From contig JAIQES010000002.1 in assembly GCA_020073705.1 (NCBI GenBank), forward strand, positions 62,001-126,000: a DNA stretch of 64,000 bases, in the 5' to 3' direction. The first letter of the stretch is position 1, and each line of letters begins with the position of its first letter. The position numbers and the translations under genes were made by a program. This document shows positions 28,351 to 60,059 of this stretch, piece by piece. The notes under the pieces are model-generated. The model was not told the origin of the DNA. It searched no databases and saw only the letters and a program-made list of their open reading frames with translations. Source of the DNA: Terriglobia bacterium. Lineage in GTDB: Bacteria; Acidobacteriota; Terriglobia; Acidiferrales; UBA7541.

Positions 28351-30543
28351 ATGCGAATCAAAATAATTGGCGAAAACAACTGCGCTCGCGCGACCCGGCA
28401 CCTGCTGCGGCAGGCGGGCTTTGCGGTGACCGAATTTCTTTCCGCTGAAGTCATCACGCAAGCACCGCACTCGGGTTACGCCATCACCATCGATCTCGCC
28501 CCGGCCCCTCACACCCCCACGGGGAGAACCCTCGGGGTGAACCCTGACCCCACCTCCAAGCCGGACGACTCCACGCACGGCCAACCCGCCACAGCCAACG
28601 AGGAAGCGTCGCCAGCACATGGAGGCGCTTCCTCGCCCACCGCTTTGTGTAGGAACACAGACTTGAGTCTGTGCAAGGGACAGGATGGGCCAAAAAGCAA
28701 GGGCGCACAGACTGAAGTCTGTGCTACTGGCCTCATCCATTTCGATTCAGTGGATAGCGCGCTGGAAGCGGCGATCTTACGGCACGTCACGCAGCTCGCT
28801 GTGACTCCGGTCGTGGTGGACCGCCCGGGCGGGGTAGTGCACTCCGAGCGCGAGGTGCGCATCGTCATCCCGCGCAGCGGCAATGCCAAGGCCGACGAAG
28901 CCGCGGCGGTGGCGGTCGAATTCGGCGTTTTGCGGGGATTACTCGACCTGACCTCGCCGCCTGCGCCCGCAGTTGCGGAGGACAAAGCAAGCCAAGGCGC
29001 GAGCGGAGGACGTAAGAAGTGGTGGATGTTCGGCATCGTGCTGCTCACCGGCTCGCTGCTGGCGCTCACCGGGAGCTTGCAGGCTTCGCCCCGGCTCGCC
29101 GTGAACGCTTCAGCGCGAGGCCTCAGCGCGAGCGCTCGCCGTGAACGGCGCGTAGTCGAGGGACGCGGCGCGGACGGCGCATTCCTGCACCTGGAAGCGG
29201 CGCTGGCTCCGGCGCAAGGACAATTCGGCACCGGACTGATGGACCTCGCGCTGATCGGGGGCGCGGCCGTGTCGAGTTCGCTCTACGACTCCGGCAACAC
29301 GGCGCTCAAGGTGAATTGCGTGGTGGGATGCGGCGCCGCATCGGGCTTCAGCGACAACGCGGCGTTCACGGCAGGCTCGACAGCAGTAAATAACATTTCA
29401 GCGGTATTCAATGATTCGATCACAGCGCTTACCATCGGCAATGCCGGCGCTCTTCGCTCTACTTCTGACCGTATGCTCTACGTCAATCTTGGCAAACTTG
29501 GGGGCACCGCTCTTTCTGGCGCTAACGTCGTTGATAGCGGCAATACCGCTTTTCGCGTCAATTGTGTTGTTGGGTGTTCCTCTTCCGCAGGGTTCACCGA
29601 CAATTCCGCCTTCACCGCCGGCGCGACCAGCGAGAGCAACGTCGGAGGCGTATTCAACGACGGGCTCGCGACGCTCTCCTCGGGCAACGCGGCCGCGGCG
29701 CGCATCACGGCGTCTCGCGCGCTGCACGTAAATTTGCGTAACGCTTCCGGCGCCGAAATCGGAACTTCGGGAGCGCCGATTCGCACTGATCCCACGGGCG
29801 CGACGACGCAGCCGGTTAGCGGAACGTTTTGGCAAGCCACTCAGCCTGTGAGCGGAACTTTTTGGCAAGCCACTCAGCCGGTAAGTATTGCCACTATGCC
29901 GACGACACCCGTGACAGGCACGTTTTGGCAGACGACTCAGCCCGTATCCTGGTCAGGGCAATCGGTTAGTCTTACTGGATCATGGCCCTATTCGGGAGCG
30001 CTCGGCACCGTTAGTCTTACTGGCAGCCTGCCTGGATTTGCCAGTACACCCGCAGTGAGTCTTAGTGGTTCCTGGCCTTACTCGGGGGCTTTGGGCACGG
30101 TCAGTCTCACCGGCACGCTCCCGGCCTTTGCGAGCACGCCGAGCGTGAAGGTCACTGACGGCGCCAACACGGCGGTCGTGGACCCCTGCAAGGGACAGAC
30201 GAAACTCTACGCCAGCATAAGTTTGACGGCAAACACGCAGCTTGTTACCGGAACTTCCGCAAAGAAAATCTATATCTGCTCGTTTCATATTGTGACGGCT
30301 TCGGCCGAGAACGTCGCACTGGTCGAGGGAACCGGCACGGTCTGCGGCACCGGCACCGCCGGAGTAGGTGGATTCGGTGGTTCAAGCGCAGCTACAGGCT
30401 GGAACTTCGCAGCCAACGGCGGCATAGCGATGGGGAACGGAGATTCCTCGATAGGCGCGGAAGGAACCAACGCCAACAATGTCTGCCTGCTGGTTTCCGG
30501 CTCGGGGCAAAAATCCGGCGGCTTTAGTTACGTGGTGCAATGA
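28351..30543 (+). CDS. Composite virion-surface-like protein with repeats
   Basis: A 730-residue protein in three parts. Residues 1-170 form a soluble domain, interrupted at about 100-129 by a translated family B pair (NTDLSLC ... QTEVCATG). A hydrophobic segment follows at about 224-242 (WMFGIVLLTGSLLALTGSLQ). The rest is a long Ala/Gly/Ser/Thr-rich part with two copies of a roughly 70-residue unit (DSGNTALKVNCVVGC and DSGNTAFRVNCVVGC) and short repeats (TQPVSGTFWQA; SLTGSWPYSGALGTV). The central helix looks like a signal peptide, so two genes may have been fused. The stop overlaps the next gene by ATGA. Confidence 0.65.
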   Translation: MRIKIIGENNCARATRHLLRQAGFAVTEFLSAEVITQAPHSGYAITIDLAPAPHTPTGRTLGVNPDPTSKPDDSTHGQPATANEEASPAHGGASSPTALCRNTDLSLCKGQDGPKSKGAQTEVCATGLIHFDSVDSALEAAILRHVTQLAVTPVVVDRPGGVVHSEREVRIVIPRSGNAKADEAAAVAVEFGVLRGLLDLTSPPAPAVAEDKASQGASGGRKKWWMFGIVLLTGSLLALTGSLQASPRLAVNASARGLSASARRERRVVEGRGADGAFLHLEAALAPAQGQFGTGLMDLALIGGAAVSSSLYDSGNTALKVNCVVGCGAASGFSDNAAFTAGSTAVNNISAVFNDSITALTIGNAGALRSTSDRMLYVNLGKLGGTALSGANVVDSGNTAFRVNCVVGCSSSAGFTDNSAFTAGATSESNVGGVFNDGLATLSSGNAAAARITASRALHVNLRNASGAEIGTSGAPIRTDPTGATTQPVSGTFWQATQPVSGTFWQATQPVSIATMPTTPVTGTFWQTTQPVSWSGQSVSLTGSWPYSGALGTVSLTGSLPGFASTPAVSLSGSWPYSGALGTVSLTGTLPAFASTPSVKVTDGANTAVVDPCKGQTKLYASISLTANTQLVTGTSAKKIYICSFHIVTASAENVALVEGTGTVCGTGTAGVGGFGGSSAATGWNFAANGGIAMGNGDSSIGAEGTNANNVCLLVSGSGQKSGGFSYVVQ
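28649..28730. repeat. Family B pair translated inside a gene
   Basis: Both palindromes are present and the reading frame stays open across them, adding about 28 residues to the 730-residue protein. Confidence 0.85.
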
Positions 30544-32167: not shown

Positions 32168-33646
32168 ATGCCATCCAAATCCAAGCCTGCGGTCCCCAAG
32201 CATGCCGACAAGCCCGAACGGTTCTTCAAATCTTTCAAGTATGGGCCCTTTGACCGGCAGAAAGAGTTTCACCATTCCGGCGCAAAATACCGGTTGTTTG
32301 GCGGGGCGGCAGGACCGGGAAAGACGAAGGCGCTGCTCTACGAGGCGATCCGTCAGGCCCACTTGCATCCTGGAGTGGACACGCTGCTGATGCGGCGGAC
32401 GTATCCGGAGCTGGAAGCTTCACTGCTCACTTATTTTCGCCGCGACGTGCCTCGCGAGCTATACGAGAAGTACAACGAGGCCAAGCACGTCGTTACGTGG
32501 CTGAACGGCTCGACGACGCGCTTTGCTTACTGCGACAGCGAAAACGATGTTTACCGCTATCAGGGCGCGGAATACCTTTTCATCGGCGTCGATGAGCTCA
32601 CGCACTTCACGCTGAAGCAGTGGCAGTTCCTCAGCAGCCGGAATCGCTGCAGCATCCGGAAGGCACGACCGTGCATGGCGGGTGCCACGAATCCCGGGAA
32701 CATCGGCCACGCCTGGGTGAAGGCGCTGTGGGTCGACCGGGTCCCCGCGCCGGGAATGGACCGGCCCGATCAGTACGACGCGGACGACTACGCGTTCATT
32801 CGCGCGACGATTGCCGATAATCCGCTGTTCAAGGACGACACGCAGTATCACAAGACGCTGGGGCAGCTCCCCGAAGCGCTGCGCCGCGCGTTCCTGGACG
32901 GCGAGTGGGACGTTTACGCGGGGCAATACTTCGACATTTTTGCGCCAGCGCGGCACACGGTGCGTCCCGAACAGGTGCAGCTCGATGCGTGGACTCCGCG
33001 CTGGATCTCGATTGACTGGGGATTCGAGCACCCCAGCGCGGTGTACTGGCACGCGACGCGCAGCGACGGCGTCGTGGTGACCTATCGCGAATTCGTGCAG
33101 AACCACCTCTCGCCGCGCATGCTCGCCGCGGCCATCGCGGAACGCAGCGTGGACCGCATGGGCCGCGCCGAGCGCGTCCGCGACGTGTATCTCTCGCCCG
33201 ACGCCTTCGCGCAACGCACCGCCGACGCGTCGATTGCCGAGCAACTCGGCGACGGGCTGGCCGCCGCGGGGTTGCCGCGTCCCGCGCCCGCCGACAATGA
33301 CCGCGTGGGGGGCTGGATGCTGATGTACCAGGCGCTCGAAAGCGATCACTGGCTGATCGCCGAGAATTGCACGCGCCTGATTGAGAACTTGCCGACGCTC
33401 ACGCGCGATCCCGCGAACGTCGAGGACACGCTGAAGTGCGACGGCGACGATCCCGCCGACGCCGCGCGGTACGGGCTGAAGTCGGCGCTCGAACCGGGCC
33501 GCGCGCCCGCCGATGTAGTCGCCGCCGAGCGCGTCACGGCCGTCGATCCGACTTCGCGCGCCATCTGGCTCAAGAAGTTTTCCGCCGAGGAGTCGCGTCG
33601 CCTCGTTCCGGTCATTCCGCGCCGCTGGAGGCCGAGCGGGTGGTAG
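32168..33646 (+). CDS. Phage terminase large subunit
   Basis: A 492-residue DNA-packaging motor. The ATPase half has the adenine/Walker A region FGGAAGPGKTKALL, Walker B YLFIGVDELTH, and the coupling motif AGATNPGN. The nuclease half starts with WISIDWGFEHPS (first metal-binding Asp) and has VYLSPDAF later. No small terminase subunit was identified upstream. The stop codon TAG directly abuts a family B repeat. Confidence 0.95.
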   Translation: MPSKSKPAVPKHADKPERFFKSFKYGPFDRQKEFHHSGAKYRLFGGAAGPGKTKALLYEAIRQAHLHPGVDTLLMRRTYPELEASLLTYFRRDVPRELYEKYNEAKHVVTWLNGSTTRFAYCDSENDVYRYQGAEYLFIGVDELTHFTLKQWQFLSSRNRCSIRKARPCMAGATNPGNIGHAWVKALWVDRVPAPGMDRPDQYDADDYAFIRATIADNPLFKDDTQYHKTLGQLPEALRRAFLDGEWDVYAGQYFDIFAPARHTVRPEQVQLDAWTPRWISIDWGFEHPSAVYWHATRSDGVVVTYREFVQNHLSPRMLAAAIAERSVDRMGRAERVRDVYLSPDAFAQRTADASIAEQLGDGLAAAGLPRPAPADNDRVGGWMLMYQALESDHWLIAENCTRLIENLPTLTRDPANVEDTLKCDGDDPADAARYGLKSALEPGRAPADVVAAERVTAVDPTSRAIWLKKFSAEESRRLVPVIPRRWRPSGW

Positions 33647-33718
33647 TAGCACAGACTTCAGTCTGTGCGGTTTTGGGTTGGCGATAGGAAAAGGCGCACA
33701 GGCTGAAGCCTGTGCTAC
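33646..33718. repeat. Family B palindrome pair
   Basis: Begins GTAGCACAG at the terminase stop codon and ends GTGCTAC. Confidence 0.88.
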
Positions 33719-33757
33719 TAGCGTAGCTGGCTGTCTTGCTGGATGAAAACCAAATGC

Positions 33758-33829
33758 GCACAGACTGAAGTCTGTGCGGCGTGTTGCATGGGCGAAAGGC
33801 AAGAGCGCACAGACTGAAGTCTGTGCTAC
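33758..33829. repeat. Family B palindrome pair at the RAYT stop codon
   Basis: Two GACTGAAGTC palindromes in direct orientation. The last TAG (minus strand) of this repeat is the stop codon of the RAYT gene. Confidence 0.88.
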
Positions 33830-34359
33830 TGAGTGCGCGACGCGCTCGACCAGGGCCATTCTTCCGGGGTTTGCACCCGGCCCGCTGCCACCGGATTCCG
33901 TTCGATGTAGGCGCGGATACGGTGCCATTGCGGTGTGTTGCGAATCCAGTGATCGAACGATTCGTCTTGCCAAAATCGCGTTCCAGTGAGACTTAGAATA
34001 CGGTTCGCCTCCCGCGCGGTCGCGCCCTTTATTATTTTTGTAATTCGGGCGATCGGGATTCTCGGCTCAAGCAGGACGTGGACGTGATTGGCCATGACGA
34101 CGTAGGCGTGGAGGCAAAACATCTCTTGCGCCTGTCCCCTGTGCAGAGCCGCGACGACGCATGTGGCGACACGCGGGTCCATCAGCCATACGGGACCGGC
34201 GGCAGCCAGATCCAGTGCGCGATCAAAACTCCGGAAACGCCTGCCGGCGGAATCGGGGATTTTGAGGTGCGCGGGAAGCGACCCATTCAGCCGCCACGTA
34301 ATGAAAACGTCTTTGCCAGCCGGCTGCCAGTGCGGAAGGTTTCGCACATAGTAGGTCAT
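33826..34359 (-). CDS. REP-associated tyrosine transposase (RAYT)
   Basis: A 177-residue Y1-type HUH transposase of the REP-associated subfamily (TnpA-REP). It begins with a typical LPHWQPAGKDVFITWRLNGS, has the metal-binding HUH motif in YVVMANHVHVLLEP, and the catalytic Tyr in IRAYIERNPVAAG. The ATG at 34357-34359 is chosen because the upstream part of the open frame is only translated REP sequence. The gene is flanked on both sides by family B pairs (33758-33829 and 34412-34486), the classical REPtron arrangement, which points to this enzyme as the mobiliser of family B. Confidence 0.92.
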   Translation of the reverse strand: MTYYVRNLPHWQPAGKDVFITWRLNGSLPAHLKIPDSAGRRFRSFDRALDLAAAGPVWLMDPRVATCVVAALHRGQAQEMFCLHAYVVMANHVHVLLEPRIPIARITKIIKGATAREANRILSLTGTRFWQDESFDHWIRNTPQWHRIRAYIERNPVAAGRVQTPEEWPWSSASRTQ

Positions 34360-34411
34360 TCTGCGGCGGGAGATTAACACGACCTGCGCGGGCAGACAAC
34401 AGCAAGTGGTG

Positions 34412-34486
34412 GTAGCACAGACTTCAGTCTGTGCGGGGTGCTGACTGGCGAAAAACCAAAACTGCACAGGCTGAAGCCTGTGCTAC
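34412..34486. repeat. Family B palindrome pair upstream of RAYT
   Basis: Left GACT/AGTC and right GGCT/AGCC palindromes with GTAG and CTAC ends. Confidence 0.88.
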
Positions 34487-34532: not shown

Positions 34533-35822
34533 TCACGCTCTGGGCGTGACGTCACGGTGGTCGATGATCAGCCTTGGCAGGAATGGTATCACCAGCAGGA
34601 TCAGCGCCGTTGTGCCGGCGTTGAGCCACACGAGCTTGAAGAAGCTGACGTGGTGCTGGTCGATCAGCCACGAACCGAAAATATCCGAAAGCGCCTGGCC
34701 GCCATTGCGCACGCTCATCATCAGGGCGAAGCCGAGGCCTTCACTGCCGCGAGGCGTGGCGCGCGCGGCGAGGTCCATCAGGGCAAGCTCCGCGACGGTG
34801 GCGATCAGGCCATTCTGGCTCTCGATGATAACGGCGGCCGTAGCCGAGCGATAGAACAGGAAGCACAGCGTGGTCAGCGTGCTGATGATGATGCCGATGT
34901 ACAACAGAGTCCGCAGATTCAACCTCCGGCACAACACGGCATAGATACCCGCGCCGACAATTCCGAAGGCCCCGGACAGCAGGATCAGCGTGCCAATGAA
35001 CGGCTGCGACAGCTTGAGGGTGTCCGTCTGGAAGTAGTAAAGCGGCGTCGAGAAGCCCGGAGCGATGTAAACCAGAAAAAGCAGTCCGGCGGCGCTCCAG
35101 AGCGTTTTGGATTGCATCAGCGTCCCGAATTGCGCCTTCGCGTTGATCCAGGCCTGGGAGCTTTTGTGCGCCAGGGGCGGTTCCTTGAGCATCAACCAGG
35201 CGAAGGGCACCACGGACAATGCGATTACAGCGCCGGCGACGGCGGTGAGTCCAAACGCGCGCGCGGCGAGGAACCCGCCGAGCGGTCCGCCGATCAACGT
35301 GCAGGCATTCATGACGAAGTAGCGCGCCGAATTGAGGCGGCCGGTGGCGCCCTCGCGCTGGCCGATCTCGACCGCGACACCGCCAACCACGGTGCTGCCG
35401 ATGACCAGCATGACGTTCACCGCGATCATTGCCAGAAGAACCGACGTGTACGTGCGGGGCACTATGCCGACGATGAGATACAGGGCGCCCGCGGCGATGG
35501 CGCTCAGAATCAGATAGTGTTTGCGGCGCGTTCCGAAGATCGGCACGCTGTCGGTAAAGATCCCGGCGAGCGGCTTGAAGTACCAAGCCAAAGTGCTGAC
35601 GGCGAAGAACGACGCCATGGCCTGGCGGGAAACGTGCAAGTCGGCTTTGAGCAGGTTCTGAAACGGCAGTCGGAGGACCGCAGGCTGCGACATGGTCGTG
35701 GCGAAAACGCCCGCGCCAATGAGCAGGGCCCAGCGGGCGAGATGCGGCTTTTCCTTCGCGGTTTGCGACACAGCTTCCGGCGTCGTAGCGCCGGCGAGAG
35801 TGCCCGGGATATCTTCGTTCAC
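34533..35822 (-). CDS. MFS transporter, folate-biopterin-transporter-like
   Basis: A 429-residue membrane protein with about 12 hydrophobic segments. FTDSVPIFGTRRKHYLILSA matches the loop 2-3 motif of the FBT/BT1 family (and related MFS). The substrate is not predictable. The start is GTG at 35822. It lies leftward between RAYT and phage genes and carries no phage function that I can see, so it is probable cargo or host sequence. Confidence 0.8.
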   Translation of the reverse strand: MNEDIPGTLAGATTPEAVSQTAKEKPHLARWALLIGAGVFATTMSQPAVLRLPFQNLLKADLHVSRQAMASFFAVSTLAWYFKPLAGIFTDSVPIFGTRRKHYLILSAIAAGALYLIVGIVPRTYTSVLLAMIAVNVMLVIGSTVVGGVAVEIGQREGATGRLNSARYFVMNACTLIGGPLGGFLAARAFGLTAVAGAVIALSVVPFAWLMLKEPPLAHKSSQAWINAKAQFGTLMQSKTLWSAAGLLFLVYIAPGFSTPLYYFQTDTLKLSQPFIGTLILLSGAFGIVGAGIYAVLCRRLNLRTLLYIGIIISTLTTLCFLFYRSATAAVIIESQNGLIATVAELALMDLAARATPRGSEGLGFALMMSVRNGGQALSDIFGSWLIDQHHVSFFKLVWLNAGTTALILLVIPFLPRLIIDHRDVTPRA

Positions 35823-38300: not shown

Positions 38301-41069
38301 ATGACAACCAATGGAATATTCCCTGTAGACGAAGCGACGCCGACAGTGGCGCCGGATTCTCCGGATTACGCGCCCGCGGATGGAAAAGTTGCGCCACGAG
38401 ACGGCAATTCGCCGCAGCCGCCTGCGAACTTGAAGGAGGCGCTGCGGCAGCTCGGGCTGGGACCAAATAATGAGTTGCTCGAGGATCAGCGTCCGGACCT
38501 GGTGAACGCGCTGCGCGAACTGGAGGTGCAGTATCGCCAGGAGGGAATTGTGGCGCGGCGGCACGAAATTCGGCGGATCCGGCAGGCGCGGCTGTTCTGG
38601 CAGGGCTTGCAGTACGCGTGGTGGAATCCGCAGGACATGACCTGGCACCTGCCGTACGAGTCCAAGATCTACGACGACGCAGCCATGGCGGAGATGCCAC
38701 GCTACCAGTTCGTTACGAACCTGTACCAGGCGTTCGGACTTTCGTTTATTTCGGTGCTCAGCCAGGATGTGCCCGCCACGCGATTTTATCCGCAGTCGGC
38801 GCAGTCGATTGCCGACATCAGCACGGCAAAGGCCGCCTCACAGGTGTCCGAGCTGGTCGAGCAAAACAACCGGGTGCAGCATCTGCTCACCGGCGTGGCG
38901 TTTTATCTGTGGACCGACGGCAAGATTGGCGGCTACGTGCGCTACATCGCCGACGCGCAGCGATTCGGGTCGCACGACGAGCCGGTGATCGAGGAGCATT
39001 ACGTGCCGCTCGGCGAGGACACCTATGCGTGCCCCGGGTGCGGCGAAGAGCAGGCGGTCGGTGCGTCCCAAGATGAGAGTGTCATTCCGAGTGCTCGCAC
39101 CGAGGCCCCGCGCCGAGGCGAAGCGAGGAATCTCTCTGCAAGTATTGGCGATCCAGGGGATCAATCGAAGAGGGATTCCTCGGCACGCAGCGTGCCTCGG
39201 AACGAGAACGGTAGGAATATTAGCGATCCCCCTGAGGATGACAACGGGGGAAATACTGGCGATCCCTCTGGGGATGACAGGGGAAGCATTGGCGCCCCGT
39301 CATTGCTGCCGCCGGTGGTTTGCCGGAACTGTGGCGCGTCGCTCGGGCCAGAGCACTTCAAACCCGCGCAGCGCGTGGCGATTCCGGTGGTGACCGGAGT
39401 GCGCCGCGTGGCCAATGGGCAGGAAGTCATCTCGGTGGTCGGCGGTCTGGAGCTGAACACGCCGGTCTGGGCGAACGAGATGCACGAGTTTCCCTACCTC
39501 CAGTGGTCCATGGAGGTGCACCGCGCGAAGCTGAAGGCGAGCTACCCGCATGCGGCGGACAAAATTCAAATGGGCGGGCCGCAGTCGGCCGACGAAGTGT
39601 ACGCGCGCGCGTCTCGCGTGGCGATCGCGCAGGGCTTGCCGACGACGCATCCCGGCGACGCGCTGTTCAACCTCGTCACGTTTTCGCGGACCTGGATCCG
39701 TCCGTGGGCGTTCTACGCCATCGAAGATAAAGCGGTTCGCGACGCGCTGCTCGCGCTGTTTCCCGACGGCTGCTACGTGGCGTTCGCCGGAGACACGTAT
39801 TGCGAGTCGCGCAATGAAACGATGGACGACCGCTGGCGCGTGATGCACGCGCTGCCCGGCGACGGACAGAACCGCCCGTCGGTCGGCGATTCTCTGGTGC
39901 AGATACAGGAACGCTACAACACGCTCTCAAACATTCAGGCCGAAACGTACGAGTACGGCATCCCGCCGATTTACGCTGATCCGCAGGTGCTCGACTTCGA
40001 CGCGCTCTCCAATCAAACCGCCGAACCCGCCGCGCACTATCCCGCGCGCGCGCGGCCCGGACAGCCGCTTGCCGCGGGATTCTTCCAGCCCGCTCCGGCG
40101 CAAGTGCCGCCGGATCTGGTGCGGCATCAGCAGGATTTGATGGGGCCGGTCGCGCAATTTCTCACCGGCCTGTTTCCCGCCGTGTTCGGCGGGGAAATGG
40201 ATTCGCAGAAGACGGCGACCGGCTATGCCATGGCGCGAGACCAGGCCCTGGGCCGGCTGGGATTGGTGTGGCGGCGCCTCAAGCAGTTTTACGCCGACGT
40301 GATGCTGCTCTCGGTCGATTGCTTCCGCAAGAATCGCCCCGAGGACGCGGAGATTCCCATTCTCGGTCCGGGCGGGGAGTTTGAGTCGCGCTGGATTCGC
40401 CTGGCCGATCTGAGAGGCAACATTCAGGCGCATCCGGAAAGCGACGAGACGTTTCCGCGCCTGAAATCGCAGCAGCGCGCCGTCGTCCAGCAATTGATGG
40501 CCTCGTCCGATCCGCTCATCCAGCAAGCGCTCGCCGATCCCGCCAACATCGGCTTCGTGAAGTCCGTGCTGGGGCTGGCCGACCTGGTCGTGCCGGGAGA
40601 GGATTCGCGCAACAAGCAGTTGCGCGAGATTGAAATGCTCTTGCAGTCAGCGCCGATTTCCGCGAATGTCATTCCGAGTCCTGGCGAAGCCGGAACGAGG
40701 AATCTCTCCGGGGTTCTTAGCGGTACTGGTGGAAAGCAACAGAGAGATTCCTCGGGCCATACAGCGGCCCTCGGAATGACAGCGCGATTGGAAAGTCAGC
40801 CTCCTCGGAATGGCAACGATGGTGCGGCCGTGTCCCCCGGTGCTACGCTGCTGCCCACCGTGCAGGTCGATCTGCTGTTCGACAATCACGCCGTGGAACT
40901 CGAGGAGTGCCGCCGGTGGGCAAACTCAGACGCCGGGCAGGTCGCGCACATGGAAAATCCCGCGGGATTCGCCAACGTCCGCGCCCACGCCGAAGCGCAT
41001 TTGCGCGCGATTGGGCTGGCGTATGCGGCGCAGAGTGCAGCGCCCGCAGCGCAAACCACCAAGACTTGA
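38301..41069 (+). CDS. Phage portal protein with in-frame repeat insertions
   Basis: A 922-residue portal-like protein. It has a central QFLTGLFPAVFGGEMDSQKTATGYAMARDQALGRLG region and Gln/Arg-rich wing helices (RRHEIRRIRQARLFWQGLQY). A zinc ribbon lies in the first half: knuckles C244/C247 (CPGCGEE) and C341/C344 (CRNCGAS). Between them, at about residues 261-330, a translated family A element and short tandem spacer repeats are inserted; a second family A insertion lies at about 790-833 near the C-terminus. Without them the protein would be about 810 residues. Identity as portal rests on position between terminase and capsid and on these motifs. Confidence 0.85.
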   Translation: MTTNGIFPVDEATPTVAPDSPDYAPADGKVAPRDGNSPQPPANLKEALRQLGLGPNNELLEDQRPDLVNALRELEVQYRQEGIVARRHEIRRIRQARLFWQGLQYAWWNPQDMTWHLPYESKIYDDAAMAEMPRYQFVTNLYQAFGLSFISVLSQDVPATRFYPQSAQSIADISTAKAASQVSELVEQNNRVQHLLTGVAFYLWTDGKIGGYVRYIADAQRFGSHDEPVIEEHYVPLGEDTYACPGCGEEQAVGASQDESVIPSARTEAPRRGEARNLSASIGDPGDQSKRDSSARSVPRNENGRNISDPPEDDNGGNTGDPSGDDRGSIGAPSLLPPVVCRNCGASLGPEHFKPAQRVAIPVVTGVRRVANGQEVISVVGGLELNTPVWANEMHEFPYLQWSMEVHRAKLKASYPHAADKIQMGGPQSADEVYARASRVAIAQGLPTTHPGDALFNLVTFSRTWIRPWAFYAIEDKAVRDALLALFPDGCYVAFAGDTYCESRNETMDDRWRVMHALPGDGQNRPSVGDSLVQIQERYNTLSNIQAETYEYGIPPIYADPQVLDFDALSNQTAEPAAHYPARARPGQPLAAGFFQPAPAQVPPDLVRHQQDLMGPVAQFLTGLFPAVFGGEMDSQKTATGYAMARDQALGRLGLVWRRLKQFYADVMLLSVDCFRKNRPEDAEIPILGPGGEFESRWIRLADLRGNIQAHPESDETFPRLKSQQRAVVQQLMASSDPLIQQALADPANIGFVKSVLGLADLVVPGEDSRNKQLREIEMLLQSAPISANVIPSPGEAGTRNLSGVLSGTGGKQQRDSSGHTAALGMTARLESQPPRNGNDGAAVSPGATLLPTVQVDLLFDNHAVELEECRRWANSDAGQVAHMENPAGFANVRAHAEAHLRAIGLAYAAQSAAPAAQTTKT
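39081..39206. repeat. Family A element in frame inside the portal zinc ribbon
   Basis: Translated as VIPSARTEAP ... ARNLS ... RDSSARSVPRNEN. It is followed by two roughly 27-base tandem copies (GGCGATCCCTCTGGGGATGA type) to about 39285. Confidence 0.9.
40668..40781. repeat. Family A element in frame near the portal C-terminus
   Basis: Translated as VIPSPGEAGTRNLS ... RDSSG ... ALGMTA. The frame shifts relative to the element between its two arms but stays open. Confidence 0.9.
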
Positions 41070-41097
41070 ACACCAACAATTGCGGCGCAGGATTTTG

Positions 41098-41195
41098 GTG
41101 GCACAGACTTCAGTCTGTGTGTGGTTGGAGTTTGGGCTCCGCGAAGCGACACGCGGGACTCGAAGTCAAAAGCGCACAGACTGAAGTCTGTGCTA
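41098..41195. repeat. Family B palindrome pair
   Basis: Left GACTTCAGTC and right GACTGAAGTC, with a longer spacer (about 55 bases). Confidence 0.85.
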
Positions 41196-41250
41196 CTCAG
41201 CAGCTCCCGCAGCCGATGCAGGGTCGTGCTACCCGACAAGGAGTTAATCG

Positions 41251-42615
41251 ATGAGCAGTGGAACGCAGATTGAGCTGGATGTGCTTGGCAGCGATGGCGG
41301 GCAGGGTGTGGCGGCAACCGCACCGGCGAGTGGCGCAAATGGCGCCGGCCCCCGTCCAGGAGTGTATCCGACCGATGAAGAAATTCTTGGGATGGAGCCG
41401 GCCGGAGCGATCACACCCGCCCGCCGCGATGTCATTCCGAGCGCTCGCACCGAGGCCTCGCACCGAGGCGACGCGAGGAATCTCTCTTCGATCGATGATG
41501 CCGGCAACGCAGGAACACAGAGGGATTCCTCGGGCAAAGACAGCCCTCGGAATGACAACCTGCAAACAAATGCTGCAATGCCGGAGTGGATGCAATCGCT
41601 TGCCGGCGACCCGCAGCATGGGGCGGAGGCGCAGCAACTCTGGCAGGAGCACCAGGCGTTCCGCGCGGCCTTTTCGTCTCCGGATGAGGCGCGGGCGATC
41701 AAGGAATTATTTCCCGGCGGGGCGCAGGAAGCGCGCACGCTGAGGCAAGCGGCGCAGGCGGTGGACCAGCTCGATGCCGCGATTTATTCAGGCGACGCGC
41801 GCGCGCAGTCGGAGGTGGTGGCGGAGCTGGCGCGCGCAAATCCTGCGGCGTTTCGTCAGCTGTTCGCCGAGGCCGCGAAGGTGCTCGCCGGAATGGGCCA
41901 GGCCAATGCACAGAGAGATTCCTCGGGCCAACCCCCCGCCCTCGGAATGACAGCGCAATTGCCCACGATGCACGGTGTCATTCCGAGCGAAGCGAGGAAT
42001 CTCTCTTCGATCGATGACCGTGCGACGTCGGGAGCGAGGAGAGATTCCTCGTCGAGCCTGAACAACGGCTCTCCTCGGAATGACAACGGGGATGTAAATG
42101 CAAGTCAGCAAACGCCGCAATTTGATCCGGCGGCGTACGCGGCGTTTGAGCGCTCGACCAACGATGTCGTGGCGCGCGACGTGCGAGCGGCGGTCAGCGA
42201 TACGCTTACGCGCGTGTTGCCCGAGGGCGTGGCGGAAGGCGCGGCCCGCCGCATCGGCGACGATATCTTCAACGAAATTCACCGCACGCTGGCCGCGGAT
42301 CGCACGCTTTCCGAGCAAGTGGGCGATGTGCTGCGCGACCGGCGGTTTGGGGCGGCGGAACAACAGCGCGTCGCTTCACTGCTCGCAGGACGCGCGAAGC
42401 AGCTTGTGCCGGGCGTGGCGCGCCGCGTGATCGGCGAATGGACCAGCTCCGTGCTGGGGACCGCGCGCACCAAGGCGGCGCGGCAGGCCGCCGCGGCGGC
42501 GCGCGTCGATATCGCCGCCCCCGGCGGGTCGCTCGATTCGATGCCGCTGCGCCCGATGTCTGCGCGCGAGATCGATTACGCCTCGATGAGCGACGACGAA
42601 ATTCTAGGAATGTAA
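41251..42615 (+). CDS. Scaffold-like phage protein with three in-frame repeat insertions
   Basis: A 454-residue acidic, Ala/Gln-rich helical protein between portal and capsid, the usual scaffold position. AAGGAG precedes the ATG. Family A copies are translated at about residues 61-102, 221-235 (half) and 242-279. The motif DEEILGM occurs at residues 42-48 and again as the last seven residues (DDEILGM), so both ends may dock onto the same partner. Scaffold function is inferred. Confidence 0.75.
   Translation: MSSGTQIELDVLGSDGGQGVAATAPASGANGAGPRPGVYPTDEEILGMEPAGAITPARRDVIPSARTEASHRGDARNLSSIDDAGNAGTQRDSSGKDSPRNDNLQTNAAMPEWMQSLAGDPQHGAEAQQLWQEHQAFRAAFSSPDEARAIKELFPGGAQEARTLRQAAQAVDQLDAAIYSGDARAQSEVVAELARANPAAFRQLFAEAAKVLAGMGQANAQRDSSGQPPALGMTAQLPTMHGVIPSEARNLSSIDDRATSGARRDSSSSLNNGSPRNDNGDVNASQQTPQFDPAAYAAFERSTNDVVARDVRAAVSDTLTRVLPEGVAEGAARRIGDDIFNEIHRTLAADRTLSEQVGDVLRDRRFGAAEQQRVASLLAGRAKQLVPGVARRVIGEWTSSVLGTARTKAARQAAAAARVDIAAPGGSLDSMPLRPMSAREIDYASMSDDEILGM
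41431..41557. repeat. Family A element in frame, scaffold gene, first copy
   Basis: Translated VIPSARTEASHRGDARNLSS ... RDSSGKDSPRNDN. Confidence 0.9.
41911..41952. repeat. Family A half element in frame, scaffold gene
   Basis: Right half only, translated QRDSSGQPPALGMTA. Confidence 0.8.
41976..42085. repeat. Family A element in frame, scaffold gene, third copy
   Basis: Translated VIPSEARNLSSIDD ... RRDSSSS ... SPRNDNG. Confidence 0.9.
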
Positions 42616-50877: not shown

Positions 50878-52077
50878 ATGACATCGGCGACGGAAACGCA
50901 AATCGCTCCATCGAGACTGCAAACCGGAGAGGACATCGAACTCTCCATCGTGATGCCTTGTTTGAACGAGAGCGCGACGATCGGGACCTGCGTCAAGAAG
51001 GCGCTCGGCGCGATGACGCGGCATGGGATTCGCGGCGAGGTGATCGTGGCGGACAACGGCAGCACGGACGGGTCGCAACAACTTGCGGCGGACCTCGGCG
51101 CGCGCGTCGTTCCCATTGAGCGGCAAGGTTACGGGAGCGCGCTGCGCGGGGGCATCGCCGCCGCGCGCGGACGCTTTGTCCTGATGGGCGATGCCGATGA
51201 CAGCTATGATTTCACGCAAGCGAACGAGTTCGTCATGAAGCTCAGGGAAGGATACGACCTGGTGATGGGGAATCGGTTTCAGGGCGGAATCCTGCCGGGC
51301 GCGATGCCTCCCCTGCATCAATATCTCGGCAATCCCGTTCTCACCGCAATTGCGCGCCTGTTCTTCAAGACCCCGATTGGCGATATTTATTGCGGCCTGC
51401 GCGCATTTCGCAAGGAAGCGATCGAGCGGCTTCAGTTGCGGACGCTGGGCATGGAATATGCCAACGAAATGGTGGTGAAGGCGACGAGGTTCGGCTTGCG
51501 CGTCACGGAAATCCCGACGGTCTTATCTCCGGACGGGCGCGGACGGCCGCCACACCTTCGTACCTGGAGGGATGGCTGGCGCACGCTGCGCTTTCTGCTG
51601 TTGTATAGCCCGCGATGGCTGTTTCTTTATCCGGGAATTTTCTCGCTTGTGCTGGGAGTCGTGGTTGGCGGGCTCCTGCTGCCTGGTCCGCTGACGATCG
51701 GAAACGTCGCGTTCGACGTTCATACGTTGCTGTTTGCAGCCATGGCGATCCTGATCGGTTTCCAATCGATGGTTTTCGCCACATTCACCAAACTGTTCGC
51801 CATTTCCGAAGGACTGCTGCCGGAAGACCCGCGTCTCAATTGGCTGTTTCGGCATGTCACCCTCGAAGTCGGACTCGTTGTCGGGGTGTTACTCATCGTT
51901 GCCGGCACCGGAGCGTGGGGGCTGGGCCTGGCGTACTGGCAAAACCACCACTTCGGCGCGCTCGACCCGGAAGAGACGTTGCGCATCGTGATTCCCGGAC
52001 TGGTGTGTTTCACACTGGGGTTCCAGACCATTCTTTCGAGTTTCTTCCTGAGCGTTCTGGGGATGTCGCGCCGGTGA
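50878..52077 (+). CDS. Family 2 glycosyltransferase with C-terminal membrane domain
   Basis: A 399-residue protein. The GT2 catalytic domain has LSIVMPCLNESATIGTCVKK, VIVADNGSTDGSQQLA, and GDADDSYDF as the metal-binding DxD, as in dolichol-phosphate mannosyltransferase-like enzymes. Four C-terminal membrane helices follow (LLLYSPRWLFLYPGIFSLVL onward). ATG 50878 is preferred; upstream in-frame starts lie in or next to repeat sequence. It probably transfers a sugar to a polyprenyl phosphate, as in prophage-borne glucosylation modules. Confidence 0.88.
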   Translation: MTSATETQIAPSRLQTGEDIELSIVMPCLNESATIGTCVKKALGAMTRHGIRGEVIVADNGSTDGSQQLAADLGARVVPIERQGYGSALRGGIAAARGRFVLMGDADDSYDFTQANEFVMKLREGYDLVMGNRFQGGILPGAMPPLHQYLGNPVLTAIARLFFKTPIGDIYCGLRAFRKEAIERLQLRTLGMEYANEMVVKATRFGLRVTEIPTVLSPDGRGRPPHLRTWRDGWRTLRFLLLYSPRWLFLYPGIFSLVLGVVVGGLLLPGPLTIGNVAFDVHTLLFAAMAILIGFQSMVFATFTKLFAISEGLLPEDPRLNWLFRHVTLEVGLVVGVLLIVAGTGAWGLGLAYWQNHHFGALDPEETLRIVIPGLVCFTLGFQTILSSFFLSVLGMSRR

Positions 52078-52345
52078 GTAGCACAGGCTTCAGCCTGTGC
52101 GGTTTTGGTTTTCTCGACGCGTCACGCTGCACAGACTGAAGTCTGTGTTACTGAAGCCGGAAGAGCTCTTTTTGTAGCACAGGCTTCAGCCTGTGCGATT
52201 TTGCTTTTCTCGACGCGTCACGCTGCACAGACTGAAGTCTGTGCTACTGAAGCCGGAAGAGCTCTTTTTGTAGCACAGGCTTCAGCCTGTGCGATTTTGC
52301 TTTTCTCGACGCGTCACGCTGCACAGACTGAAGTCTGTGTTACTG
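52078..52345. repeat. Three tandem 96-base units of family B
   Basis: Units start at 52078, 52174 and 52270. Each has a GGCT/AGCC left palindrome, a spacer with CTCGACGCGTCACGCTG, a GACT/AGTC right palindrome and a GAAGCCGGAAGAGCTCTTTT linker. The units differ at only a few bases. Confidence 0.92.
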
Positions 52346-54702: not shown

Positions 54703-57429
54703 ATGTCTATCGCAGGAACAATTGACGCGCCGCTGGATTTGTTCGGCGGGCTAGTGACCGATATGGCCGCGGCGGACTTGCCGCAAGGCGTCTCGCCCGA
54801 CTGCCAGGACGTTGCCTTCTTGCAGGGTGCGGTGAAAACACGGCCGGGACTGGTCTCGGTATTTTCACCGATCGTTTCTCCAACGGGGGGCAATCCCACG
54901 GTCAACTACCTGAAGACCTACACGCAGCCGAACCTCGCGCAAACGCTGCTGGCGCTCGATTCGGCGGGCACGTTGTGGAAAGAGACCTCTCCTGGCGTAC
55001 TGTCGCAGGTCGCCACGGGCCTGCCGGCGAACGCCGCGGCGAGTTCCACGTCGCTTTTTGGCCGTGAATATATCGCGCTGCACGACGGCCAGTTTGGCGT
55101 GGACCCGCCGCGACAGTACGACGGCACGAACTTCGACCGCGTAAGCCAGATCGGGCCCGGCGCGGGAGTGGCCGCGATCAGCGACATCGTGGCCAACATT
55201 TCCGCGATCTCGCGGGCTTCGGGGATCGTTACGGTAACCACCGCGACACCTCTCGGATTAATTGCCAGCGACCAGGTCACCATCGCGGGCGTAACGAACA
55301 CGAGCTTTAACGGCACATTTGCTGTCGCGTCAATCCCGGATTCGCTGCATTTCACCTACGCTCAGGCCCTCGCCGACACGACGTCGAGCGGTGGCACAGC
55401 GGCTCCGGTCGGCTCGATCGCGGCGGGCGTGCATCAGTGCGCCGTGATTTTCGTCACGCGGCAGGGCTATCTGACGCGGCCGTCGCCACCGGTATCGTGG
55501 ACCTCGGCCGGCGGATGCCGCGCCATCGTAACGGGAATCCCGGTGCCATCCGGTTTGCCGAACATCGTGGCGCGCATTCTGGCGTTCACCGGCGCGGGCG
55601 GCGACAATTTCTACTACACGACGGGACTTGACGGCGCGCCGCAGATGCAGGTCTCCGATAATTCAGCGTCGTTGTTCGTCGTAGATTTTTCGGACACCGC
55701 GCTGATCGCGGGGCTTTCCGCGGATTCGCTGTTTCAATTGGTTGAACTCGGAGAATGCGCGGGCGTGCTCGGCTACGCGGAACGGTTATTCTGGTGGGGC
55801 GAACGGAACAAGCAGAACAACTGGGACAATCTCACCTTTGACGGCTGTTTCAACGGCGACGTGCCTCTCGGATGGACCACCGATGCAACCTACGGCGCCG
55901 GCGGCGGCCGCGATTCAACGGGAAAAGCCGTCTGGGGCGGCGCATATTCGATCCTGGGCGACGGCGCGACGCCCACGCGCGGGCTGATCACGCAATCCGC
56001 GGTCGTGGATTACAACGGGGCGCCGCGCCTGCAGCCGAACACAGCGTACTCGGCGCGCGCCCGCGTGCGCATGACGGGAGCGCTCACGCAGGGCACCCTG
56101 CACGTCCATCTTTACAGCGCCTCACTGGGGATTTCGACCACGGGCATCGCGGTGCCCGCGGCCCAAGTCACCACAAGCGCCTGGAAGGAATTTATCGCGC
56201 CGATCACTCCTTCGGGCGGGCCTTCGGGCGGGCCATCGGGCGGGTTCGCGACGATCCCGCCAGACCTGCTGCTGCGCGTCTATGCCGACGGCACGCCAAC
56301 AAACGGCGCCGGCTTCCTGGTCGAGAACATCGAAATCTTTCGCGCGGCCGAGCCGTACAACACATCGCTGGTGCGCGCTTCCTTCGCCGAGGACCCGGAC
56401 AGTTACGACGGCGTCAGCGGCTTTATGAGTGTCTCCGAAAACGACGGGCAGACGGTGCGCGCGGCGTTCGTGCTGCGCGAGAATCTCTACCTCGTGAAGG
56501 ACCGCTCGATCTACGTCACCTCGGACGACGGCGTGAACGAGCCGGCTTCGTGGGCGATCAAGGAAGTCTCGGTCACGGTGGGTACACCTTCGGTCGCGGG
56601 CGTGGATACGGGAGAGGACTGGGCCGTGATCGCCGGGCGCGCCGGGATGTACATCTTCGACGGCGGCCAGGTGGTAAAAATCTCGCAGGAGATCCAGCCG
56701 CTGTGGGACCAGATCAACTGGGCCGCGGGACATACGCTCTGGGTGCGCGTCGACACGCTCAACAAGCGCATCCTGTGCGGCGTTCCGATCGGCGCCGCCA
56801 CTTCGCCCAACCGCATCCTCGTGCTCGACTATCGCAGCCTGGCCAGCGCCGGAGAAATCGCGTCGCTGGGCTCCGTGCTCTTCTCTACGATGTCCGGCAA
56901 ACTGTACGCGGTGGGCCGGTCGCGCAAGTGGTGCCCGTGGAATATCACGGCAAGCTCCTGCGCGCTTGCCGAGCGTCCCGACGGCACCTCGCAAATCTTT
57001 CTTGGAAACGGAAGCATGAACGGCGCGGGCAACGGCAAAATCTATCAACTTTCCGACACGCAATTCTCCGACGACGGCGCGGCAATCAATTCCTACTACA
57101 CGACGTACTTTTTTCTGAGCAACGAACTCGAACAAGCCTACCAGGTGCGCTCGCACCGGAAACTGTTCGCATATTTGGCGATATACGCCGAAGGGGCAGG
57201 GAACTTGAACCTCTCCGCGTTCGTGGCGAACGAGGCCTATCCGACCGCGCTCGCGCCGCTGCCGCTTTCCTCGCCTTCGCCGAAGGACCTCGAACTGCCC
57301 ATCAATTTGCTCGGAGAACGTGTCGCGTTCCAGGTGGGCACCAACTCCCCAGGCGCGTGGTTCAAGCTCGAACGGTTTATCCCCTCGCTGCTGCCTGATC
57401 CCTGGGCCCCGGTCAGGGGAGGGAATTGA
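54703..57429 (+). CDS. Large phage tail/nozzle-like virion protein
   Basis: A 908-residue protein. The N-terminus (DLFGGLVTDMAAADLPQGVSPDCQDVAFL) is of the kind seen in podovirus tail-nozzle/tail-stabilising proteins, followed by beta-rich repeats; residues about 176-233 share the GVTNTSFNGTFAVASIPDS unit with the fibre-like protein. The later half includes lectin-like (LFQLVELGECAGVLGYAERL) and propeller-like (GEDWAVIAGRAGMYIFDGGQ) segments. The last about 40 residues (ERVAFQVGTNSPGAWFKLER ... RFIPSLLPDPWAPVRGGN) are duplicated twice downstream at DNA level. No strong ribosome binding site. Confidence 0.75.
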   Translation: MSIAGTIDAPLDLFGGLVTDMAAADLPQGVSPDCQDVAFLQGAVKTRPGLVSVFSPIVSPTGGNPTVNYLKTYTQPNLAQTLLALDSAGTLWKETSPGVLSQVATGLPANAAASSTSLFGREYIALHDGQFGVDPPRQYDGTNFDRVSQIGPGAGVAAISDIVANISAISRASGIVTVTTATPLGLIASDQVTIAGVTNTSFNGTFAVASIPDSLHFTYAQALADTTSSGGTAAPVGSIAAGVHQCAVIFVTRQGYLTRPSPPVSWTSAGGCRAIVTGIPVPSGLPNIVARILAFTGAGGDNFYYTTGLDGAPQMQVSDNSASLFVVDFSDTALIAGLSADSLFQLVELGECAGVLGYAERLFWWGERNKQNNWDNLTFDGCFNGDVPLGWTTDATYGAGGGRDSTGKAVWGGAYSILGDGATPTRGLITQSAVVDYNGAPRLQPNTAYSARARVRMTGALTQGTLHVHLYSASLGISTTGIAVPAAQVTTSAWKEFIAPITPSGGPSGGPSGGFATIPPDLLLRVYADGTPTNGAGFLVENIEIFRAAEPYNTSLVRASFAEDPDSYDGVSGFMSVSENDGQTVRAAFVLRENLYLVKDRSIYVTSDDGVNEPASWAIKEVSVTVGTPSVAGVDTGEDWAVIAGRAGMYIFDGGQVVKISQEIQPLWDQINWAAGHTLWVRVDTLNKRILCGVPIGAATSPNRILVLDYRSLASAGEIASLGSVLFSTMSGKLYAVGRSRKWCPWNITASSCALAERPDGTSQIFLGNGSMNGAGNGKIYQLSDTQFSDDGAAINSYYTTYFFLSNELEQAYQVRSHRKLFAYLAIYAEGAGNLNLSAFVANEAYPTALAPLPLSSPSPKDLELPINLLGERVAFQVGTNSPGAWFKLERFIPSLLPDPWAPVRGGN
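57309..57429 (+). repeat. 3'-end repeat, copy 1 (inside the 908-residue gene)
   Basis: Original copy of a segment repeated at 58983-59103 (whole) and 59829-59884 (last part). Confidence 0.9.
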
Positions 57430-57434
57430 CGTTA

Positions 57435-57559
57435 GTAGCACAGACTTTAGTCTGTGCGGTTTAGCACTGGCGGCGCGAACGCCCTCAGGCTTAAAGCTGC
57501 ACCCTGCGACGGTCGGGATTCTCAAGCGAAAAATGCGCACAGACTAAAGTCTGTGCTAC
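57435..57559. repeat. Family B pair with long spacer
   Basis: Left GACTTTAGTC and right GACTAAAGTC, about 78 bases between. The same long-spacer form recurs at 59889-60013. Confidence 0.88.
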
Positions 57560-57572
57560 CGACCCCCGTGTT

Positions 57573-57698
57573 GTCATTCCGAACGAAGTGAGGAATCTCT
57601 CTGTGATTTTCGGCTCAGCAGAACCAAAACCACGGAGAGATTCCTCGTCGCTTCGCCCCGACCCGGTCGGGGCCTCGGTGCGAGCGCCCGGAATGACA
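57573..57698. repeat. Family A element
   Basis: Complete arms with an enlarged tip (CGACCCGGTCGGGGCC). Confidence 0.8.
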
Positions 57699-57746
57699 AC
57701 GCGATTGGACACATAGGCTGAAATCCGTCCTGCAAAAGTAAATGTT

Positions 57747-58394
57747 ATGCCCCTCATCAACGGCACGTACTACATGAATCCGCAATACGGCCTGGGGCTC
57801 GAGCGCGCCAAAGCCGCCGATGCCGATTTCAGGAGACTGAACGGAGAGTCAGGGCCATCCTGGCTCGATCATTTCCTCGGTTTTTTGCCGACAGCCGCGG
57901 AGCAAACGAGGGAGCGTGGGCGGAAACAAGCTCAGGAACACGCGCAGAGCGACAGAACTAGTGATGAAACCGTCGGCAATGTTACTTATAATGAAACCGC
58001 TGGACTCAGGGAAACTTCAAAGACCGGAAAAGGGAGTTCGCAAGACCTGCATGAAGCGAGAGTGGGAACGGTGGGCGTCCTCAAGAATCTCGATGCGAAC
58101 GGGCAGAAGCTGGGGAAACCGCTGACGGCACCCACGCACCTCACAACCCAAGAGGCGAAGGCCGTGCGGAACTACGGCCCAGCAAAACATACCTACGAAG
58201 ATTCGCAAACCGCCGCCAGCAAAGCTTCAGGCGACAGAAATGGCCCAACCCATTTCTATCTGGATCATGGTCAGCCCAAGCCCAGGTGGACCAAAGGAAA
58301 GGAACCCAAACAGAGCTATGGCCCGTTCCGGAACGATGCCGGGGACGGGGATGTCCCAAAAGGTGCCAAGGTTTGGATTCGGGTTTATGATTAG
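57747..58394 (+). CDS. Effector-like cassette protein
   Basis: A 215-residue protein. The N-terminal part (YYMNPQYGLGLERAKAADAD ... WLDHFLGFLPTAAEQTRE) looks like a short targeting or virion-linked segment; a polar linker follows. The C-terminal part (about 140-215: GPTHFYLDHGQPKPRW, QSYGPFRNDAGDGDVPKGAK, VWIRVYD) matches the tail of the broken ORF at 36.9-37.1 kb. Catalytic residues are not identifiable, but THFYLDH offers conserved polar side chains. An exported small protein follows 17 bases later with a strong ribosome binding site. A wall-active toxin is a guess. Confidence 0.55.
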   Translation: MPLINGTYYMNPQYGLGLERAKAADADFRRLNGESGPSWLDHFLGFLPTAAEQTRERGRKQAQEHAQSDRTSDETVGNVTYNETAGLRETSKTGKGSSQDLHEARVGTVGVLKNLDANGQKLGKPLTAPTHLTTQEAKAVRNYGPAKHTYEDSQTAASKASGDRNGPTHFYLDHGQPKPRWTKGKEPKQSYGPFRNDAGDGDVPKGAKVWIRVYD

Positions 58395-58411
58395 GCGATA
58401 AGGAGGTCCTT

Positions 58412-58933
58412 GTGAACATCCGGATCCCGATCGCCTTGTTTCTGATGCTTTGTTTGGCAACTGCTCTCCTAGCTGGCCGGTCGCAACAAAAGCGGCCCAT
58501 TCGCGAAGCAGAGATCAATGCCGTCATTGAGGCTATTCAAGACGAAATTTATGACCTGAACTTGGAAAAGGATTTCTTCTCTGTCGGAACGACAACCAAA
58601 GACAATCGCGACCAGGAAATATTGAACGTGTATTTCCAGCCGGACGTCCTTGACAACTCTAGGTCCTGGATCATCTACAAGCTAATGCCCGACGGCGAAA
58701 TCCTGCGAATGTATGAGATTGGCCGCAGCGGGCGCATCTATTTGCACGGCAAGCCGGGCGAATTTCGCATTACGCAGCCTGATTACCCAACAGTATATAT
58801 GGACGATGACGATCTTTGTAAGCTCAAGCACGATTGGATCAAACGTCAGTTCATCGTGGACACGAATCCCGATCCAAGACTAGTGGCCGCCGCGCGCGAG
58901 CGGCAAAGAGCGCGCAGGCAAGCCTCTCGCTGA
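58412..58933 (+). CDS. Small Sec-exported partner protein
   Basis: A 173-residue protein with GTG start and AGGAGG 5 bases upstream. Signal peptide: IRIPIALFLMLCLATALLAG. The mature part is mixed alpha/beta (EINAVIEAIQDEIYDLNLEK, WIIYKLMPDGEILRMYEIGR) with an Arg-rich tail. No family recognised. Tight coupling to the upstream ORF suggests partnership, for example immunity; this is inference. Confidence 0.65.
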   Translation: MNIRIPIALFLMLCLATALLAGRSQQKRPIREAEINAVIEAIQDEIYDLNLEKDFFSVGTTTKDNRDQEILNVYFQPDVLDNSRSWIIYKLMPDGEILRMYEIGRSGRIYLHGKPGEFRITQPDYPTVYMDDDDLCKLKHDWIKRQFIVDTNPDPRLVAAARERQRARRQASR

Positions 58934-58982
58934 CCGGCTGGGCGCTGCCGGCTTGAAAGACGAGACACCGAGCGCTGCCCAG

Positions 58983-59103
58983 GCTCGGAGAACGTGTCGC
59001 GTTCCAGGTGGGCACCAACTCCCCAGGCGCGTGGTTCCGACTCGAGCGGTTTATCCCCTCGCTGCTGCCCGATCCCTGGGCCCCGGTCAGGGGAGGGAAT
59101 TGA
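58983..59103 (+). repeat. 3'-end repeat, copy 2
   Basis: A 121-base copy of the last bases of the 908-residue gene, including its TGA, with few changes. It is not attached to an upstream coding region. Confidence 0.9.
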
Positions 59104-59187
59104 CGCTGCGTCGCCAACAGTCAATTACCGATCATCCGGCTTGGCAGGCACAATCCGAAAGAAGCTGTAGCATTCGTTTGGAAAACG

Positions 59188-59712: not shown

Positions 59713-59828
59713 GGGTAGCCTCCCCGAACTTCGTGTTCCCATCCTAGGACGTCTGCTATTGTTCACCAAATGTAGCTCTTGTCAACGTGTTTGAAAGTAT
59801 CCGAACGTGGCGGACCTGATTCACCAAC

Positions 59829-60059
59829 GATTCATCCCCTCGCTGCTGCCCGATCCCTGGGCCCCGGTCAGGGGAGGGAATTGACGTTGGTAGCACAGAC
59901 TTTAGTCTGTGCGGTTTAGCACTGGCGGCGCGAACGCCCTCAGGCTTAAAGCTGCACCCTGCGACGGTCGGGATTCTCAAGCGAAAAATGCGCACAGACT
60001 AAAGTCTGTGCTACCGACCCCTGTGTTGTCATTCCGAACGAAGTGAGGAATCTCTCTGT
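59829..60059 (+). repeat. 3'-end repeat, copy 3, extending through the downstream repeats
   Basis: About 230 bases nearly identical to 57372-57602: the last codons and TGA of the 908-residue gene, the long-spacer family B pair (59889-60013) and the start of a family A element. Confidence 0.9.

What the first reader, a model, noticed from the sequence alone, without database searches (positions are those of the whole stretch)
39081..42085. Palindromic elements translated in frame inside portal and scaffold genes
Five whole or half family A elements lie within two essential head genes, all read in the same strand, each leaving the frame open. The encoded peptides recur (VIPSEARNLS, RDSSG, PRNDN). 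All three forward frames of the element core appear stop-free, so it is tolerated wherever it lands. This resembles the Rickettsia palindromic elements that insert in frame in genes, but here in a phage.
Basis: partly seen in the sequence, partly recalled or inferred. Interest (0 to 1): 0.9.

Follow-up and report, generated by a model that had tools for sequence, protein, structure and literature searches.

The report
Translated palindromic repeats in prophage proteins
A virus integrated in a soil acidobacterium, and many related viruses, carry short palindromic genome repeats inside essential virion genes, always in a readable frame and only in floppy linkers, as in Rickettsia genes but now in viral structural proteins and with many unrelated repeat families.

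Summary
Five family-A elements (four full, one half) lie in frame in a portal gene (fold confirmed) and a helical gene in scaffold position, in a prophage of an Acidobacteriota genome. Across 77 related viral and prophage loci the same linkers hold at least eight unrelated repeat families. Portal linker 1 matches non-homologous repeat DNA in 24 of 59 loci, against 16 of 745 conserved pieces (p about 1e-19). The inserts fall in segments predicted disordered. The genes outside them are under strong purifying selection (portal dN/dS about 0.11-0.14).

Family B (GTAG-tagged) is REPIN-like and flanks the only Y1/RAYT-type transposase detected in the genome, which lies in the prophage. Family A has no recognisable mobiliser.

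Best reading: a high load of host-type repeats, filtered by selection so that in-frame copies in disordered linkers survive. This works like Rickettsia palindromic elements but is a separate instance, in virion genes. New variant of a known kind.

The parts
38301..41069 (+). Portal protein gene (922 aa), with two insert-bearing linkers (residues about 255-334 and 792-846)
   Evidence: Foldseek/VIA-align: portals of SU10, Pan3, N4, P22, T7, Z up to 23.8; no PHROG/Pfam/NCBIfam match
39081..39206 (+). P1: full family-A element in frame, portal linker 1, between two nearly invariant Cys pairs (C244/C247 and C341/C344)
   Evidence: pLDDT<50 at 255-309 and 311-334
40668..40814 (+). P2: family-A element (40668-40780) plus extra right-arm remnant, in frame, portal linker 2
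   Evidence: pLDDT<50 at 792-846
41251..42615 (+). Putative scaffold gene (454 aa, all-helical model, between portal and major capsid), two disordered linkers; DEEILGM/DDEILGM motif near both ends
   Evidence: position and model; no family match
41431..41556 (+). S1: full family-A element in frame, scaffold N-linker; element at the same site in L032, L048, L083, L084; left hairpin tip replaced by a long form
41913..41951 (+). S2: right half of a family-A element, in frame, scaffold mid-linker
41977..42084 (+). S3: full family-A element (VIPSEARNLS...PRND), in frame, scaffold mid-linker
   Evidence: pLDDT<50 at 219-283
28652..28727 (+). Family-B pair (two GTAG-type REP arms, inverted) in frame in ORF 28351-30543; relatives carry other repeats or none at this site
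33826..34467 (-). Y1/HUH transposase, RAYT-like (213 aa), the only Y1_Tnp found in this genome; family-B arms on both sides (33646-33829, 34412-34486); homologues at the same place in L033, L048, L084
32168..33646 (+). Terminase large subunit; family-B arm overlaps or abuts its stop codon
42852..44123 (+). Major capsid protein, no inserts
   Evidence: PHROG 14242 E 1.3e-4, NCBIfam NF033394 E 9e-10 below cut-off

Best explanation
Family A is a host-type interspersed element: an inverted pair of hairpin arms ATTCCGA-[variable self-complementary tip]-GAGGAAT around a 30-60 bp spacer. Together with a second, GTAG-tagged family (B, REPIN-like, with a RAYT-like transposase in the prophage) it has accumulated about 25-fold (A) and 60-fold (B) in this prophage relative to the rest of the host genome. 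Copies that landed inside essential virion genes survive only where they are tolerated: in disordered linkers (portal between the two Cys pairs, portal C-terminal linker, scaffold N- and mid-linkers, the linker of ORF 28351) and with total length and frame keeping the ORF open. There they are predicted to be translated as flexible filler. Linker content turns over: relatives hold other repeat families at the same spots, and tips and arms are swapped within an old element. Shown: presence, frame, linker location, variation and empty sites in relatives, purifying selection outside the linkers. Inferred: translation of the inserts, neutrality, mobilisation of B by the RAYT-like enzyme. Unknown: what mobilises A.
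For: In-frame copies. Relatives lack or replace them at the same sites. Linkers match non-homologous repeat DNA: portal linker 1 24/59 vs 16/745 controls, p 1e-19; portal linker 2 8/27, p 4e-7. Independent of family, linkers have more hairpin potential than conserved pieces (mean z -1.12 vs -0.25, p 5e-8). Inserts coincide with pLDDT<50 segments of both models. Portal outside linkers dN 0.09-0.12, dS 0.80-0.93. Enrichment: A 29 of 107 arms and B 51 of 75 in about 1.1% of the genome. 12/12 left arms in the VIP frame; most right ends in the ..ND frame, two in LGMT. The S1 site is shared by five phages, and in the window its left tip is 27 bp longer, like prophage intergenic copies. Host control: a radical-SAM gene with A in its inter-domain linker, empty in two congeners. 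RAYT-like gene flanked by B.
Against: No protein or transcript data. Scaffold linkers are only modestly enriched over scaffold controls (24% and 14% vs 8%). dS inside the shared S1 element is lower than in the rest of the gene (about 0.3-0.5 vs 0.95-1.2 for window against L048, L083, L084), which simple neutrality does not predict; gene conversion or DNA-level constraint may act. Orthology lowers the number of independent events behind the frame count. No target-site duplications for A. RAYT HMM score is below the curated cut-off (71.4 vs 80).
Confidence: 0.8

Rival explanations
1. The linkers are kept as capture and exchange sites: repeat-containing linkers recombine with each other and with host repeats, giving useful variation in linker length or sequence, so the elements are selected for rather than tolerated.
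For: Same linkers reused by at least eight families across the clade; spacer AATCTCTCTTCGATCG occurs only in coding copies, in two genes and five phages, and not in intergenic copies of this genome; tip swap and low dS in S1; one frame used 12/12 times.
Against: Repeats are at least as frequent in intergenic gaps; the S1 peptide evolves fast (dN/dS about 0.5-0.6); some relatives have short linkers without repeats.
Confidence: 0.12
2. The prophage is a decaying remnant and the ORFs are open by chance.
For: The prophage carries an unusually heavy repeat load; a few relatives have frame breaks in the portal gene (L036, L053).
Against: Portal dN/dS about 0.11-0.14 against six relatives with intact long ORFs; homologues in most of 77 loci.
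Confidence: 0.03
3. VIPSEARNLS/RDSSG is a true protein motif shared by relatives, and the DNA similarity to the repeat is incidental.
For: The S1 peptide is shared by five phages.
Against: Up to 100% DNA identity over 32 bp between coding copies and non-homologous loci; at P1 and P2 most relatives lack the residues; other families fill the same site.
Confidence: 0.02
4. Assembly or binning artefact.
For: The genome is in 78 contigs and the named genome relatives are metagenome-assembled.
Against: The prophage region is on one contig with host genes; similar insertions occur in independent viral contigs and genome assemblies.
Confidence: 0.02

Closest known systems
Rickettsia palindromic elements (RPE; Ogata et al. 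2000, as summarised in PMC10969869 and PMC2229807)
   Same: About 100-150 bp palindromic hairpin elements, intergenic and in frame inside genes of conserved proteins; predicted or shown tolerated insertions
   Different: Different host phylum, and no sequence relation is known; here many unrelated families share the same linkers; targets are virion assembly genes in a prophage clade; inverted pair of short arms with variable tips
REP / REPIN with RAYT transposase (PMC3116915; GTAG-tagged REPs incl. Acidobacteria, PMC3733652)
   Same: Family B: GTAG tag, palindrome, inverted pairs about 75 bp, RAYT-like gene flanked by the repeats
   Different: Concentrated in a prophage that carries the only Y1 gene detected; one pair in frame in a coding sequence; family A lacks the GTAG tag and has no linked transposase
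Bacterial MITEs read in frame (Correia, ERIC, YPAL; PMC2229807)
   Same: Short non-autonomous elements fused in frame to ORFs
   Different: No target-site duplication found for family A

Membership tests
Rickettsia palindromic elements | Palindromic repeat of about 100-150 bp, intergenic and in frame in genes | tested here: met
Rickettsia palindromic elements | Occurs in Rickettsia | tested here: not met
   All named genome relatives of the prophage are Acidobacteriota assemblies, and the window's prophage joins host genes
Rickettsia palindromic elements | Belongs to an RPE sequence family | tested here: inconclusive
   Portal and scaffold match no NCBIfam model at E 0.01; no direct comparison with RPE sequences
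REPIN/RAYT (family B) | GTAG/GTGG tag followed by a palindrome | tested here: met
   GTAGCACAGACTTCAGTCTGTGC, 75 copies with up to 3 mismatches
REPIN/RAYT (family B) | Arms in inverted pairs | tested here: met
   B+ B- pairs of about 75 bp
REPIN/RAYT (family B) | Linked RAYT tyrosine transposase | tested here: inconclusive
   Flanking gene is Y1_Tnp above Pfam cut-off; NCBIfam RAYT 71.4 bits, cut-off 80; HVH and Tyr motifs seen by eye
REP (family A) | GTAG or CGTC tag and linked transposase | tested here: not met
   Arms start GTCATTCC with variable flank; only one Y1 gene, next to B
MITE (family A) | Terminal inverted repeats | tested here: met
   GTCATTCCGA...TCGGAATGAC
MITE (family A) | Target-site duplication | tested here: not met
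   32 elements, matches at k=2-9 no more than mispaired flanks
Phage portal protein | Portal fold | tested here: met
   Z up to 23.8 to solved portals
Scaffold protein | Scaffolding function | not testable with these tools
   Only position and an all-helical model

The most novel reading that the evidence does not exclude
This phage lineage has turned disordered linkers of its virion genes into landing and exchange sites for host repeats: a coding-only sublineage of the element moves between linkers of different virion genes in one reading frame, so that a translated mobile repeat diversifies essential viral proteins, with a phage-carried RAYT-like enzyme feeding the supply.
Probability: 0.12. 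Interest if true: 0.88.

Novelty: new variant of a known kind. Interest (0 to 1): 0.64.

Why it matters
In-frame palindromic elements are best known from Rickettsia genes. Here they occur repeatedly in virion assembly genes, in a clade with tens of sequenced relatives, with empty, filled and re-filled sites. This makes it testable whether translated repeats are neutral filler or raw material for disordered protein linkers, and whether phages carry REP-type elements and a RAYT-like enzyme between hosts. In 2.9 million viral contigs, exact family-A arms occur in only 8 stretches and exact family-B arms in 4; at least 6 and all 4 of these belong to this clade.

Tried and rejected
Phage-record searches for the capsid protein, the portal N-terminus and the S3 element found nothing. 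Pfam/PHROGs/NCBIfam do not recognise portal or scaffold. A first version of the linker test was spoiled by unmasked homologues and was redone. Target-site duplications: none. Two host ORFs spanning family-A copies (L021, L024) have no family match and look spurious. ORF 45564 also spans a family-B pair at residues 94-119, but its domain starts at residue 172 and later starts exist, so that pair is probably upstream of the gene. The tRNA-Pro call at 7085-7184 overlaps an A element and is probably false. A literature search with the family-A sequence found nothing relevant.

Full report
What is there. The window lies on a 127.7-kb contig of a 3.79-Mb, 97%-complete genome. Its left part holds host genes (ferrochelatase, ParB, fumarase, Ppx/GppA and others). 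From about 25 kb it holds a prophage with terminase, portal, putative scaffold and major capsid. All named genome relatives found with the terminase are Acidobacteriota assemblies. The exact left edge of the prophage was not determined.

Two repeat families crowd the prophage. Family A is an inverted pair of arms GTCATTCCGA-[tip]-GAGGAATCTCTC...; the tips vary but are mostly self-complementary. Of 107 arms in the genome, 29 lie in the last 40.7 kb of the contig (expected about 1.2 by length). Family B is GTAGCACAGACTTCAGTCTGTGC in inverted pairs, with 51 of 75 copies there (expected about 0.8). Family A is spread through the host genus (12 to 105 exact arms per genome) and patchily through the class; exact B is concentrated in this genome.

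The observation. Five A elements (four full, one half) sit in frame in the portal and the putative scaffold. The claim that all three frames are open is wrong for the right arm, which reads TGA in one frame. A further case was missed: a family-B pair in frame in ORF 28351-30543, at a linker where relatives hold other repeats.

Relatives. Terminase searches gave 51 viral-contig loci and 26 genome loci. In the seven closest, portal linker 1 has no A element, and portal linker 2 has one only in L033. The scaffold N-linker has an A element at the same site in the window, L032, L048, L083 and L084, so that insertion is old; L033 has family B there and L085 other repeats. In the window copy the left hairpin tip is 27 bp longer than in those relatives, and this long form appears elsewhere only among prophage copies. 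The spacer AATCTCTCTTCGATCG (exact or nearly so) occurs in S1, S3, the L033 portal and the L048/L083/L084 scaffolds, and in no intergenic copy of the prophage; one match with a mismatch lies elsewhere in the genome, at C2:12473, and was not examined. So some coding copies share a lineage.

Is it more than chance? Linker DNA was compared with all DNA of the loci after masking the homologous genes. At E 1e-4, 24 of 59 portal linker-1 segments and 8 of 27 linker-2 segments matched non-homologous DNA, against 16 of 745 portal controls. Scaffold linkers are enriched less (24% and 14% against 8%). The matches fall into at least eight families, such as VIPSEARNLS, KSTQAEACAT, GSEDPGYS, TLRKNGEGWGTQ, ITNHESPVTNHQSPVT, VGARHVVPLP, RGATLGSPGRG and ILRSAQND; the family count is by reading the hit list. 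A test that uses no family, hairpin stability against shuffles, also separates linkers from controls (p 5e-8). These p-values treat related sequences as independent, so they overstate the evidence.

Selection and structure. Outside the linkers the portal has dN/dS about 0.11-0.14. The shared S1 element has about 0.5-0.6 (window against L048, L083, L084, L032) on only 34-35 codons, with dS below that of the rest of the gene for the first three; this is unexplained and may mean gene conversion. AlphaFold2 models place the inserts in segments with pLDDT below 50: portal 255-334 and 792-846, scaffold 50-106 and 219-283. The portal model matches solved portals. The inserts themselves could lower pLDDT, but relatives without A elements vary in length at the same places.

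Frame. All 12 family-A-type left arms found in these genes across the relatives are read in the VIP frame although all three are open. Several are orthologous, so the number of independent events is perhaps seven (my estimate). The host radical-SAM copy uses a different frame (SFRGAKRRGIS), so the element itself does not force the frame.

Host control. The radical-SAM/B12-type gene (C29:73732-75267) carries A in the linker between its domains. Two congeners have it (L112, L113), two others do not (L121, L122), nor do the homologues shown from other genera. Of 24 host loci with an exact arm, this is the only clear coding case.

Mechanism. B flanks the only Y1 transposase detected in the genome, a RAYT-like protein inside the prophage with homologues at the same place in three relatives. 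That B moves by it is inferred. A has no GTAG tag, no target-site duplication and no linked transposase, so its mobiliser is unknown.

Known context. RPEs in Rickettsia genes (PMC10969869, PMC2229807) are the closest analogue; REPIN/RAYT systems (PMC3116915, PMC3733652) fit family B. I found no paper on such elements in phage structural genes, but the library holds open-licence papers only.

Noticed in passing
window 33644-33668; L083/L086 11431; L141 1303; L142 2459; L143 707; L033 1205: A family-B arm overlaps or closely follows the terminase stop codon in several relatives whose terminases differ by up to about 45%; it may act as a 3' end signal or be inherited.
   Followed up: partly
L094, L097, L098, L099 terminase genes: The terminase loop after IDWGFEHPAAVYWH is hypervariable and carries repeat-like peptides (e.g. 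GVGAGLKPAPTD) in distant relatives.
   Followed up: partly
window 41251-42615: Putative scaffold has the motif DEEILGM near the N-terminus and DDEILGM at the C-terminus, kept in close relatives.
   Followed up: no
window 34533-35822 (-): MFS/BT1-type transporter gene between the RAYT-like gene and the portal, possible cargo.
   Followed up: no
window 7085-7215: ARAGORN tRNA-Pro call of 100 nt overlaps a family-A element; probably a false call.
   Followed up: no
window 57371-60059 and 52077-52343: Duplicated stretches of 234 bp (98%) 2455 bp apart, and a 96-bp tandem of family-B pairs.
   Followed up: no
L107: A distant relative has many A arms, including in-frame ones at the portal N-terminus and in the scaffold mid-linker.
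   Followed up: partly
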